The notes beneath the pieces were generated by a model. That model did not search any database. It had not been told where the DNA came from and was given only the letters and a program-made list of their open reading frames with translations. The translations under genes were made by a program, and so were the position numbers. Of a stretch of DNA of 64,000 nucleotides, positions 32,341 to 49,524 are shown piece after piece; position 1 is the first letter of the stretch, and each line of letters opens with the position of its first letter. Source of the stretch: Synchiropus splendidus (lineage: Eukaryota; Chordata; Actinopteri; Syngnathiformes; Callionymidae); contig NC_071348.1 of assembly GCF_027744825.2 (NCBI RefSeq), positions 21,423,563 to 21,487,562 on the forward strand, read 5' to 3'.

Positions 32341-32910
32341 ATGGATGCCTCTTCCTCTGCACGTCGTAGGTGAATATTTATCTGTCTATCTATCCATCTA
32401 TCTATATCTATACAGTATACATATAAGTATATACATATATGTGTATCTATGTATTTACATTTACATATATAAGTATAATAAAAACGTTACGCCATGTTTA
32501 TCACGTACCATGTCTCTTTTCATTGACAGACGTCGTCACTCATCTGTGTGACGTTCATTTAACGCAGAGTGATACTGGTAAAAACATTGAATTATTTTAT
32601 AATTCGTTGTTAATATCTCTATTATGTGTTACAACAGCCGCACTTCTATTTTTCAGATATTATCGCCTCCGCGAATAACTTCCCGGAGACGCTGATCGGC
32701 GCTGAGGAGCTTGAGCGGTTAATGCGTGTAACTTTTGAAGACGGAGATGCCCGTGCGGATCTGTCGGCTGTGACTCCGAGAGCGAGTCTTCAAGACAGCG
32801 GCACCGAGGCTCAGAACACGCCGTGTATTATAATAATCGACAGCGAGGACGAGTTCGTCCGGGGCCGAGTACAGGAAATCGAGCGAAGGGGAGTAACCAA
32901 CGCTCTCTGA
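32341..32910 (+). CDS. G2: 5' exons 1-3 of an unrecognised gene with a SUMO-interaction-like motif
   Basis: Exon 1 is 32341-32365 (MDASSSAR, donor GTAGGT; an overlapping donor GTGAAT three bases on would break the frame). Exon 2 is 32530-32577 (48 bases, acceptor TTGACAG, donor GTAAAAAC; VVTHLCDVHLTQSDT). Exon 3 starts at 32657 (acceptor TATTTTTCAG), reads IIASANNFPETLIGAEELER, LMRVTFEDGDARADLS, then CIIIIDSEDEFVRGRVQEIE and stops at 32908-32910. All junctions are phase 1, and exon sizes of exon 2 match between G1 and G2. IIIIDSEDE fits the SUMO-interaction motif: a run of aliphatic residues followed by acidic and Ser residues. A second exon in another frame (32875-32964, 90 bases, acceptor GAGTACAG, donor GTGAGAAG, basic: SLSHKRRYNSARKTGP) could link exon 2 in phase 1 to the cassettes; its acceptor is weak. 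No known family recognised. Confidence 0.5.
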
Positions 32911-33052
32911 GCCATAAGAGACGGTATAATTCGGCACGGAAGACAGGACCGGCGCGAGTCATTGGTGAGAAGGAGACAGCGATTCTAATCATAATTACGA
33001 TAACTAGGTAAAGAACAGCGGTATTTATTAAGTGTATATACATGCGTATATG

Positions 33053-33123
<71 letters not shown>

Positions 33124-33131
33124 ATGAAAAG

Positions 33132-33643
33132 ATCACCCGGAACCCGGAAATCAGACACGACCGGGAAGTCATCCGGACCCTGTGGATGCTGATCATTCAT
33201 TGAACGGGTCGCTCCAACTGTTCAACGGTGAGAGCAAAACATTCAGTTCAATAAAAAAAAGTATTTTAAGCACAGTCTGTCGATGTATTTTATATTTAAC
33301 TACCTATGTTTTTTGTTTTATTCAACGCCTGTGCATATGAAAACAGACCATCAGTCAGAGGTCGAAGGAGTAGGGCACACGCTCGTTGATTCTTTAACTC
33401 ACCAGACGCCTCAGCTGATAGGAGGTGGGAAAAAACATTTTGGAGTGATAGTTTACGTTTCACTGCTGTATTTATTTATTTATTTTTTCACATGAAAACA
33501 GATACAAAGACAACGAGCACGCCACACCTTCTACCTGTCGCTTCAACACCAACACCAACACCAACGTTTGGTAAGATACGAATCTCAATTTTTTTCAACA
33601 CATCTCTACCGTTCAGTATCAGTTGAATGGTTGTATGTTCGCT

Positions 33644-33678
<35 letters not shown>

Positions 33679-33795
33679 ACGTGCGTGCGTGCGTGCGTGT
33701 GCGTGTGTGTGTGTTTTATCTGTAATGCGGTTTGTCTATGTTCCGGCTGTGTGCTTTTAGACGGTGTCATTTTACTATTGAAGGTGTTTGAGTAA
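33132..33795 (+). CDS. G2 cassette block 1: exons H, Q, T and Y
   Basis: H 33132-33227 (96 bases, acceptor CATGAAAAG after a GT tract, donor GTGAGAGC) reads HPEPGNQTRPGSHPDPVDAD. Q 33347-33424 (78 bases, donor GTGGGAAA) reads HQSEVEGVGHTLVDSLTHQT. T 33502-33570 (69 bases, acceptor ACATGAAAACAG, donor GTAAGATA) reads TKTTSTPHLLPVASTPTPTP. Y 33761-33795 reads GVILLLKVFE-stop. Every exon is a multiple of three and enters and leaves in phase 1. The sequence is acidic and Pro/Ser/Thr-rich, probably disordered. Splicing is predicted only. All four exons in this block are intact. Confidence 0.5.
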
Positions 33796-33831
33796 CTGTT
33801 GCTGCTAAGCGTCATTGTGATTTTACTACTA

Positions 33832-34095
33832 TGCTTTAACGACGACGGACACTAGAGGTCGCGATTACTATTTCACACTATGCTTTAACGACGGCGGCCA
33901 CGTGAGGTCGTGATTACTATTTCACACTATGCTTTAACGACGGCGGCCACTAGAGGTCGTGATTTTACTAACTGTAATGTGCTTTAACGACGGCGTCCAC
34001 TAGAGGTCGTGATTTTACTAACTGTAATGTGGTTAAACGACGGCGTCCACTAGAGGTCGTGATTTTACTAATTATAATGTGCTTTAATGACAGTA
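33832..34095 (+). repeat. 50-bp minisatellite array V1, ~5 units
   Basis: Shortest array type, between Y and P exons. Ends with the fixed boundary TATACACTAGTGATTTACTA that closes nearly all arrays. Confidence 0.95.
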
Positions 34096-46598: not shown

Positions 46599-46629
46599 CT
46601 GTTGCTGCTAAGCGTCATTGTGATTTTAC

Positions 46630-47545
46630 TACTATGCTTTAACGACGATGGACACTAGAGGTCGCGATTACTATTTCACACTATGCTTTAACGATGGCGA
46701 CCACTAGAGGTCGGGATTACTAATTTACACTATGCTTTAACGACGGCGGCCACTAGAGGTCGTGATTTTACTAACTGTAATGTGCTTTAACGACGGCGGC
46801 CACTAGAGGTCGTGATTTTACTAATTGTAATGTGCTTTAACGACGGCTGCCGCTAGAGGCCGTGATTTTACTAACTGTAATTAGCTTTAACGACGCCGGC
46901 CGCTAGAGGTCGTGATTTTACTAACTGTAATGTGCTTTAATGACGGCGGCCACTAGAGGTCGTGATTTTACTAACTGTAATGTGCTTTAACGACGGCGGC
47001 CACTAGAGGTCGTGATTTTACTAACTGTAATGTGCTTTAACGACGGCGGCCACTAGAGGTCGTGATTTTACTAATTGTAATGTGCTTTAACGACGGCGGC
47101 CACTAGAGGTCGTGATTTTACTAATTGTAATGTGCTTTAACGACGGCGGCCACTAGAGGTCGTGATTTTACTAATTGTAATGTGCTTTAACGACGGCGGC
47201 CACTAGAGGTCGTGATTTTACTAACTGTAATGTGCTTTAACGACGGCGGCCACTAGAGGTCGTGATTTTACTAATTGTAATGTGGTTTAACGACGGCGTC
47301 CACTAGAGGTCGTGATTTTACTAACTGTAATGTGGTTTAACGACGGCGGCCGCTAGAGGTCGTGATTTTACTAATTGTAATGTGGTTTAACGACGGCGTC
47401 CACTAGAGGTCGTGATTTTACTAACTGTAATGTGGTTTAACGACGGCGGCCACTAGAGGTCGTGATTTTACTAACTGTAATGTGGTTTAACGACGGCGTC
47501 CACTAGAGGTCGTGATTTTACTTATTGTAAAGTGGTTTAATGAGA
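46630..47545 (+). repeat. 50-bp minisatellite array V9, ~18 units
   Basis: Contains the rare variant GGCTGCCGCTAGAGGCCGTG, shared with V10 only. Confidence 0.95.
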
Positions 47546-47708
47546 GTATACACTAGTGATTTACTATTTGTTTTTACGCTTTAAATGTTGATCCTTAGTA
47601 GATCCCTACATTTACACTCTGTTTATATTAATATCATATTAACTGCTATCCGAGGTCTTGCTTCTAGATTGTATTTACATTTGTGTTGTTGTCGGTATTC
47701 TGTTTCAG

Positions 47709-48075
47709 CTCTCCCCTCTGGGTCTTGGCCTTTGTGGGAGACATCGACGCCGGTTTCCTCAGTACCTCTGGATCTACTATCCGGACCGTTCCCTGCTGAA
47801 GACTCGACGTCGGCATCTGGGCTATCCGCACCTCCACAGCCACCGTCGCCGACACCATCAGCACCGCCAGCAACCACAGACAAGCCGCGGACATCGCCCC
47901 GGATACCAAAACAAAAAGAAAGAAATACTTGTGTGTGTGTGTGTGTGTGTGCGCGTACGTGCGTGCGTGCGTGTGTGTGTGCGTGTGTGTGTGTTTTATC
48001 TGTAATGCGGTTTGTCTATGTTCTGGCTATGTGCTTTTAGACGGTGTCATTTTACTATTGAAGGTGTTTGAGTAA
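47709..48075 (+). CDS. G2 cassette block 10: exons P and Y
   Basis: P 47709-47930 and Y 48041-48075, both intact. Confidence 0.45.
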
Positions 48076-48107
48076 CTGTTGCTGCTAAGCGTCATTGTGA
48101 TTTTACT

Positions 48108-49125
48108 ACTATGCTTTAACGACGATGGACACTAGAGGTCGCGATTACTATTTCACACTATGCTTTAACGATGGCGACCACTAGAGGTCGGGATTACTAA
48201 TTTACACTATGCTTTAACGACGGCGGCCACTAGAGGTCGTGATTTTATTAATTGTAATGTGCTTTAACGACGGCTGCCGCTAGAGGCCGTGATTTTACTA
48301 ACTGTAATTAGCTTTAACGACGCCGGCCGCTAGAGGTCGTGATTTTACTAACTGCAATGTGCTTTAACGACGGCGGCCACTAGAGGTCGTGATTTTACTA
48401 ACTGTAATGTGCTTTAACGATGGCGGCCACTAGAGGTCTTGATTTTACTAATTGTAATGTGCTTTAACGACAGCGGCCGCTAGAGGTCGTGATTTTACTA
48501 ACTGTAATGTGGTTTAATGACGGCGTCCAATAGAGGTCGTGATTTTACTAACTGTAATGTGGTTTAACGACGGCGGCCGCTAGAGGTCGTGATTTTACTA
48601 ACTGCAATGTGCTTTAACGACGGCGGCCGCTAGAGGTCGTGATTTTACTAATTGTAATGTGCTTTAACGACGGCGGCCACTAGAGGTCGTGATTTTAATA
48701 ATTGTAATGTGCTTTAACGACGGCGGCCACTAGAGGACGTGATTTTACCAATTGAAATGTGGTTTAACGACGGCGTCCACTAGAGGTCGTGATTTTACTA
48801 ATTGTAATGTGCTTTAACGACGGCGGCCACTAGAGGTCGTGATTTTACTAACTGTAATGTGGTTTAACGACGGCGGCCACTAGAGGTCGTGATTTTACTA
48901 ACTGTAATGTGCTTTAACAACGGCGGCCACTAGAGGTCGTGATTTTCCTAACTGTAATGTGCTTTAACGACGGCGGCCGCTAGAGGTCGTGATTTTACTA
49001 ATTGTAATGTGCTTTAACGACGGCGGCCACTAGAGGTCGTGATTTTACTAACTGTAATGTGGTTTAACGACGGCGGCCACTAGAGGTCGTGATTTTACTT
49101 ATTGTAAAGTGGTTTAATGAGAGTA
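48108..49125 (+). repeat. 50-bp minisatellite array V10, ~20 units
   Basis: Last array of G2; ends with the usual TATACACTAGTGATTTACTA boundary. Confidence 0.95.
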
Positions 49126-49285
49126 TACACTAGTGATTTACTATTTGTTTTTACGCTTTAAATGTTGATCCTTAGTAGATCCCTACATTTACACTCTGTT
49201 TATATTAATATCATATTAACTGCTATCCGAGGTCTTGCTTCTAGATTGTATTTACATTTGTGTTTTTGTCGGTATTCTGTTTCAG

Positions 49286-49524
49286 CTCTCCCCTCTGGGT
49301 CTTGGCCTTTGTGGGAGACATCGACGCCGGTTTCCTCAGTACCTCTGGATCTACTATCCGGACCGTTCCCTGCTGAAGACTCGACGTCGGCATCTGGGCT
49401 ATCCGCACCTCCACAGCCACCGTCGCCGACACCATCAGCACCGCCAGCAACCACAGACAAGCCGCGGACATCGCCCCGGATACCAAAACAAAAAGAAAGA
49501 AATACTTTTAGTTTTCAGCATTAG
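49286..49524 (+). CDS. G2 terminal P exon
   Basis: Same start as other P exons (acceptor TTCTGTTTCAG), but after KQKERNT the GT tract is replaced by segment X and the frame ends FSFQH-stop at 49522-49524. This is the last possible coding exon of G2 and matches the terminal P of G0 (FRFQH-stop). Confidence 0.45.

What the first reader, a model, noticed from the sequence alone, without database searches (positions are those of the whole stretch)
32341..49524. A gene built from repeated, phase-1 symmetrical exon cassettes
Reading splice signals gives H (96 bases), Q (78), T (69) and P (222) exons that all start and end in phase 1, plus a terminal Y exon (phase-1 start, stop after about 10 codons). 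Between 33.1 and 49.5 kb the order is HQT-Y-P-Y-P-HQT-Y-P-Y-P-HQT-Y-P-HQT-Y-P-HQT-Y-P-Y-P-Y-P-Y-P(end). This could make many isoforms of an acidic, Pro/Ser/Thr-rich protein by cassette choice. ORF callers miss it because the exons are short. I know no family with this protein. Exon lengths and splice sites are seen directly; transcription is inference.
Basis: partly seen in the sequence, partly recalled or inferred. Interest (0 to 1): 0.9.

Follow-up and report, generated by a model that had tools for sequence, protein, structure and literature searches.

The report
Spliced provirus gene with repeated exons
In what is very probably the mandarinfish genome, an integrated virus carries a gene that looks cut into interchangeable exons, and part of that gene has been copied over and over into a long array that now behaves like unselected repeat DNA rather than a working isoform machine.

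Summary
Five H-Q-T sets and ten P units lie in the stated order, but not all are intact: 3 of 5 H-Q-T sets carry a frameshift, stop or lost splice site. The DNA belongs to a Maverick/Polinton (adintovirus-type) provirus: chromodomain integrase, PolB and a double jelly-roll capsid protein, very probably in Synchiropus splendidus. The array is a partial, amplified copy of an accessory gene ("X") directly upstream of polB. In 12 of 12 other loci X runs Q-T-long P exon-last exon-polB. The long P exon (483 nt in the reference) keeps splice sites and frame in 18 of 18 stretches, down to 58% identity, with dN/dS near 0.5 in the most diverged pairs. Array units look neutral: H-Q-T 31 nonsynonymous to 12 synonymous, P 27 to 13; 23 of 62 sets are broken. 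In 65 of 76 P copies the unit runs into (GT)n, so unequal exchange at microsatellites is the likely amplifier. Introns would differ from the intronless genes reported for intact vertebrate Mavericks (PMC8097293). No transcripts were examined; isoform choice is unproven.

The parts
21832..23181 (-). major capsid protein, double jelly-roll (left element copy)
   Evidence: 390 relatives; model matches Sputnik, PBCV-1 and mavirus capsid proteins
24682..25077 (-). C-terminal part of the integrase with chromodomain (left element copy)
   Evidence: Pfam Chromo E 3.4e-9
25049..25678 (-). integrase core (rve), left element copy
   Evidence: Pfam rve E 1.1e-9
14433..14690 (+). second copy of exons E1-E2, upstream of a polB remnant (19.4 kb)
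   Evidence: 88.6% match to 32180-32596, read
30711..30932 (+). isolated P unit whose frame reads on to a stop (terminal form)
32345..32369 (+). E1, coding part read from the second ATG, donor TAG|GTGAAT, phase 1
   Evidence: sequence; donor score 74
32530..32577 (+). E2, 48 nt, phase 1 to 1
   Evidence: 15 of 15 copies keep length, AG and GT
32657..32910 (+). E3, open to a stop at 32908-32910; carries CIIIIDSEDEF
32875..32964 (+). E4 candidate, 90 nt, phase 1 to 1, weak-looking acceptor, donor TTG|GTGAGA
   Evidence: 90 nt in 8 of 14 copies, 89 nt in 6
33132..33227 (+). H, set 1
33347..33424 (+). Q, set 1
33502..33570 (+). T, set 1
33761..33796 (+). Y, first array copy (others begin at 34572, 37071, 38539, 39932, 42271, 43952, 45383, 46564, 48041; one more at 29817)
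34256..34477 (+). P 1
36164..36385 (+). P 2
36416..36511 (+). H, set 2
36631..36708 (+). Q, set 2
36786..36850 (+). T, set 2, 65 nt (frame lost)
38217..38438 (+). P 3
39034..39255 (+). P 4
39286..39381 (+). H, set 3
39502..39579 (+). Q, set 3
39657..39725 (+). T, set 3, in-frame stop
41377..41598 (+). P 5
41633..41728 (+). H, set 4
41849..41926 (+). Q, set 4
42004..42072 (+). T, set 4
43066..43287 (+). P 6
43320..43408 (+). H, set 5, 89 nt (frame lost)
43529..43606 (+). Q, set 5, acceptor AG lost
43683..43745 (+). T, set 5, 63 nt
45049..45270 (+). P 7
46228..46449 (+). P 8
47709..47930 (+). P 9
49286..49524 (+). P 10, terminal form, stop at 49522-49524
51140..51562 (+). older H-Q-T set of the polB-adjacent gene (H 51140-51235, Q 51341-51418, T 51494-51562); its E1, E2 and most of E3 are deleted here
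52752..52842 (+). P': start of the long P exon fused by deletion to the end of the last exon
53055..55124 (+). polB of the right element, from its ATG; interrupted by an in-frame stop at 53343-53345
   Evidence: sequence; ORF 53346-55124; DNA_pol_B_2 E 1.2e-5, just under the cut-off

Best explanation
The region is the accessory region, upstream of polB, of Maverick/Polinton (adintovirus-type) proviruses of a fish, very probably the mandarinfish Synchiropus splendidus. It holds a spliced accessory gene, here called X, built from phase-1 exons: E1, E2, E3/E4, H, Q, T, a long P exon (483 nt in the reference copy) and a last exon that ends about 210 nt before polB. In a subset of proviruses a shortened stretch of this gene (H-Q-T-Y-intron minisatellite-first part of P, 222 nt) has been amplified in tandem. 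Where one unit follows another, the joint is P followed by (GT)n, leading either to H or to Y, so repeated unequal exchange or template switching at the GT microsatellites most likely made both main unit types (HQT-Y-P and Y-P); a few loci also have an extra Q-T after Y, by another joint. The array units then drift: they show no sign of selection on their reading frames. Shown: anatomy, provirus context, conserved long P exon, neutral array. Inferred: splicing, the microsatellite mechanism, and the role of X. From its layout (acidic IIII-DSEDE stretch in E3, disordered-looking Pro/Ser/Thr linker, basic and probably helical end of long P) X is guessed to be a nuclear regulatory protein of the virus.
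For: Provirus context: rve integrase and chromodomain, PolB, capsid with 390 relatives and double jelly-roll matches, gene order as in PMC8097293 section 7. Gene X next to polB: in 12 of 12 loci (L032-L043; L033 is the L013 place) Q, T, long P, last exon and polB follow in that order. Long P exon: acceptor AG|CT, donor GAAG|GTAAGATT and frame kept in 18 of 18 stretches; dN/dS 0.46-0.56 in the 15 pairs with dS 0.37-0.44; synonymous against nonsynonymous p about 0.001 in two such pairs. Arrays belong to it: 26 of 28 HQT clusters (from the 40 scored rows) have a long P on the same strand 5.5-28 kb downstream; the window, one of the 2 exceptions, has the deleted P' there. L020 reads E1-E2-E3-(HQTYP)x3-QTY-long P in one run. 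Neutral array: 31:12 and 27:13 nonsynonymous to synonymous against expected fractions 0.741 and 0.704; pooled 58 of 83 fits neutrality (p 0.62) better than a dN/dS of 0.48 (p 0.011); exon not less variable than intron; 23 of 62 HQT sets broken. GT joints: of 76 P copies 49 go GT to H, 16 GT to Y, 9 are terminal forms and 2 long-P forms.
Against: No transcript was seen. H, Q and T show no more conservation than introns even between the array lineage and the polB-adjacent lineage (exon 15/243, intron 9/195; N 10, S 5). H of the L013 gene, whose long P is intact, lacks 25 nt, and H is split in the same way in L032; that H was below my length cut and is not in the tallies. In 13 of 14 E3 copies the E3 frame closes before the good donor at the end of E4, and the 14th (L021) lacks the 5' part, so how E2/E3 joins H is open. 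Flanking intron is about as conserved as the long P exon (exon 80-92%, flanks 81-94%), so frame and dN/dS, not a drop at the boundary, mark the exon; some of its indels are whole units of a 9-nt repeat and would keep frame anyway. In closer pairs (dS 0.16 or less) dN/dS ranges from 0 to 1.2. A pooled test against dN/dS 0.48 is only p 0.011, and each half alone is p 0.06-0.08. No terminal inverted repeats were found. No relative of the long P exon outside this genome was found.
Confidence: 0.78

Rival explanations
1. One reading: the array is one gene whose phase-1 cassettes are chosen or chained to give many isoforms of a Pro/Ser/Thr-rich protein.
For: Symmetrical exons; a public protein model of this species chains five P units; from its peptide, three of its four joints fit ACTT to CT and one lies 2 nt later, which changes the frame (its DNA was not seen). 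L020 has array units inside one run ending in the long P exon. 222 nt is a multiple of three, and no array P of 72 has a stop.
Against: Neutral polymorphism and 23 of 62 broken sets; weak P donor at (GT)n; a frame-losing T unit multiplied into 10 sets. How P0121 was predicted, from RNA or from sequence alone, could not be seen.
Confidence: 0.13
2. A host gene, domesticated from the provirus, whose exon array serves the fish.
For: Constraint on the long P exon in diverged pairs.
Against: 152 matches on many contigs, beside polB in 12 of 12 loci checked: it behaves as part of a mobile element.
Confidence: 0.05
3. Pure satellite DNA: there never was a gene, the exon-like signals are chance.
For: The array behaves as a tandem repeat with a 50-bp minisatellite inside.
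Against: Conserved splice sites and frame, and dN/dS near 0.5, of the long P exon at 58-60% identity; seven donors at or above the window's 95th percentile that agree in phase 1.
Confidence: 0.04

Closest known systems
Vertebrate Mavericks (Polintons), PMC8097293 (section 7 and found passages read)
   Same: Two modules facing inwards: polB and ATPase on one strand; protease, capsid, minor capsid and integrase on the other; accessory regions outside the core.
   Different: [quoted passage not shown] here the accessory gene beside polB appears spliced, and in array loci this region alone spans about 6 to 50 kb (positions).
Adintoviruses (PMC11071296, found passages read)
   Same: Integrase with C-terminal chromodomain, PolB, double jelly-roll hexon.
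   Different: No spliced modular accessory gene is mentioned in the passages seen; an OTU-like domain on PolB was not shown here.
Multi-exon repeat proteins with symmetrical exons (recalled: titin PEVK, mucins, nebulin)
   Same: Repeated phase-matched exons of low-complexity coding sequence.
   Different: Those arrays are known as expressed proteins (recalled); these units look neutral and are often broken.

Membership tests
Maverick/Polinton | retrovirus-like integrase with chromodomain | tested here: met
Maverick/Polinton | family B DNA polymerase | tested here: met
   DNA_pol_B_2, 3.7e-6 (above the cut-off) for 56975-57712 and 1.2e-5 (just under it) for 53346-55124
Maverick/Polinton | double jelly-roll major capsid protein | tested here: met
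   model pLDDT 75, best matches Sputnik, PBCV-1, an iridovirus and mavirus capsid proteins, TM about 0.5-0.6
Maverick/Polinton | two-module gene order facing inwards | tested here: met
[quoted passage not shown]
   no inverted repeats between the flanks searched; ends were not fully available, so these copies are degraded or rearranged rather than intact; target duplications were not tested
Maverick/Polinton | packaging ATPase and cysteine protease | tested here: inconclusive
   only a sub-threshold Pox_A32 match (E 0.034) for 19400-20068 and none for 21301-21690
Maverick/Polinton | intronless genes (reported for intact vertebrate elements) | tested here: inconclusive
   gene X has predicted introns, without RNA evidence; these copies are not intact elements
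Adintovirus | PolB with N-terminal OTU-like domain | tested here: inconclusive
   no OTU family reported for 53346-55124; by sequence only
Symmetrical-exon isoform gene | selection on cassette reading frames | tested here: not met
Symmetrical-exon isoform gene | transcripts with alternative cassette use | not testable with these tools
   no RNA data

The most novel reading that the evidence does not exclude
A DNA provirus accessory gene that uses phase-symmetrical exons and exon amplification inside the element to vary the length and make-up of a disordered linker in its protein, so that each provirus locus encodes its own family of isoforms.
Probability: 0.1. Interest if true: 0.85.

Novelty: new variant of a known kind. 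Interest (0 to 1): 0.5.

Why it matters
Genes of intact vertebrate Mavericks have been reported as intronless. A fast-changing, spliced accessory gene next to polB, with 152 matches of one exon in one fish genome, would mean such elements use host splicing, as small DNA tumour viruses do (recalled), and that gene finders based on open frames miss part of their coding content. It is also a clean case of exon cassettes multiplying without visible selection, a warning against reading regular exon arrays as isoform machines.

Tried and rejected
Isoform machine: rejected as the main reading because of neutral polymorphism and broken sets. Host gene: disfavoured because copies sit beside polB. Satellite only: disfavoured because of the long P exon. 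Relatives of gene X: long P alone, long P inside a longer natural open frame, Pfam, PDB sequences, IMG/VR and PHROGs (a PHROG match at E 0.011 is not taken as evidence); nothing outside this genome. These searches see predicted proteins of limited length (136-434 residues) and not raw fish genomes, so absence elsewhere is weak. The capsid protein in IMG/VR also found nothing. The first protein search could not have found a full-length protein because of its length rule, so one search was run with a 248-residue natural frame. Papers: searches (listings; passages of PMC8097293, PMC11071296 and PMC8664458 read, and one section of the first) showed no account of a spliced accessory gene or exon array in a Maverick; that is an absence within those searches only. 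Terminal repeats: none. In the first writing of this report I had a pooled p of 0.002 from a mistyped expectation; one search gives 0.011, and confidence in the best explanation was lowered from 0.80 to 0.78 for it.
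Full report
Where it lies. The window is G000:C15:21423563-21487562 of a 583-Mb genome. A protein model named for Synchiropus splendidus lies on a contig of exactly the length of C5, 34,533,849 bases, so the host is very probably the mandarinfish (taxonomy).

The observation. Lengths are modal, not universal. Set 2 has a T of 65 nt, set 3 a stop in T, set 5 an H of 89 nt and a Q without its acceptor. Sets 1 and 4 are clean.

Context. Integrase with chromodomain, PolB and a capsid protein with 390 relatives frame the region; of the 120 relatives listed, the named ones are fish, a few with a second, ferret label. 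The capsid model best matches double jelly-roll capsid proteins of Sputnik, PBCV-1, an iridovirus and mavirus. The gene order is that of vertebrate Mavericks (PMC8097293, section 7). The window holds pieces of two such elements in line: a left one ending in the integrase at 25.7 kb, and a right one whose polB, interrupted by a stop at 53343, starts after the array and whose integrase lies just beyond the window (L029). The stretch between integrase and gene X is 99% or more identical over most of its length in four places on two contigs, so it is part of what has spread. No terminal inverted repeats were found.

The gene. In L013 and in the loci the exons continue beyond what the window shows: the P unit is only the first part of an exon of 483 nt (long P), which ends at GAAG|GTAAGATT and is followed by a last exon that stops about 210 nt before polB. 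The order Q-T-long P-last exon-polB was seen in 12 of 12 loci (one is the L013 place). In the window this gene is damaged: E1, E2 and most of E3 are missing before 50.9 kb, and long P is fused to the last exon at 52.8 kb. The first exon is best read from the second ATG (32345), which gives a good donor and phase 1. How E2/E3 connects to H is open: in 13 of 14 E3 copies the frame closes before the good donor, and the 14th lacks the 5' part; a 90-nt phase-1 exon (E4) could bridge, but its acceptor looks weak and it is 89 nt in 6 of 14 copies. H of the L013 gene lacks 25 nt.

Is it coding? Long P gave 152 matches at 59-100% identity, 150 of 1997 first-look candidates having been scored; 12 of the listed rows report an internal stop. 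In 18 of 18 stretches compared, including six at 58-83% identity, acceptor, donor and frame are kept. dN/dS is 0.46-0.56 in the 15 comparisons with dS 0.37-0.44 (p about 0.001 for two of them); in closer pairs it ranges from 0 to 1.2. Against this, the flanking introns are as conserved as the exon. No relative was found in the protein collection, Pfam, PDB or IMG/VR, although capsid relatives of many fish are in the same protein collection.

Is the array coding? 60 HQT sets from the window and 20 fetched stretches gave 44 exon changes in 243 sites and 34 intron changes in 221 sites (Fisher p 0.46); 31 nonsynonymous to 12 synonymous, where neutrality predicts a fraction of 0.741. 72 P units gave 27 to 13, expected fraction 0.704. 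Pooled, 58 of 83 fits neutrality (p 0.62) and departs from a dN/dS of 0.48 (p 0.011; each half alone 0.06-0.08). 23 of 62 sets have at least one defect, among them a T of 64 nt in 10 sets of eight stretches on four contigs: a broken unit was itself multiplied. There is no sign that the array is kept for its reading frames. None of the 72 P units has a stop, which with 40 changes says little.

How the array arose. After 65 of 76 P copies comes a run of 2 to 12 GT, leading to H in 49 and to Y in 16; 9 are terminal forms and 2 are long-P forms. GT microsatellites also lie in the E3-H and T-Y introns. One founding joint between P and (GT)n, followed by unequal exchange, explains both main unit types. 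An extra Q-T after Y in L016, L018, L019 and L023 needs a different joint. 26 of 28 HQT clusters have a long P exon on the same strand 5.5 to 28 kb downstream; the exceptions are the window, where it is deleted, and a cluster on C7. So the arrays grew inside the accessory region, in L020 inside one run from E1 to long P.

What it does. Inference only: the E3 frame holds CIIIIDSEDEF, which resembles a SUMO-interacting motif (recalled), and long P has a proline-rich half and a basic, probably helical, end. A nuclear regulatory protein of the virus is the guess. The public model P0121 shows that an annotation pipeline can chain P units; its evidence is unknown.

Verdict. A new variant of a known kind: a Maverick-type provirus with a predicted spliced, phase-1 accessory gene and a neutral, microsatellite-driven exon array.

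Noticed in passing
window 10000-12300: Array of degenerate tRNA-like units of about 86 bp in both orientations; Rfam finds one tRNA match at 11325-11397 (-).
   Followed up: no
window 1-13000 and L029:4000-8000: Pieces of the sequence left of the first element reappear at roughly 80-94% identity right of the second element's integrase, as if the element pair sits inside a larger repeated block.
   Followed up: partly
window 19400-21190, 54962-56727, 58529-61923: The block polB end-ATPase-downstream ORF is repeated within and between the elements at 88-94% identity.
   Followed up: no
window 14642-14690 and 14879-14930: E2 is present twice in tandem in the left copy of gene X, again as a phase-1 exon of 48 nt.
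   Followed up: partly
L034:630-1000 and window 51883-52256: The T-P intron carries a 48-50 bp minisatellite also in polB-adjacent genes without an array, so it may be older than the array.
   Followed up: partly
L034, L040, L041: The Q exon donor is GC instead of GT in these three polB-adjacent genes.
   Followed up: no
P0121: A public protein named 'translation initiation factor IF-2-like' of this fish is a chain of P units of such an array, partly in a second frame: a misleading name.
   Followed up: partly
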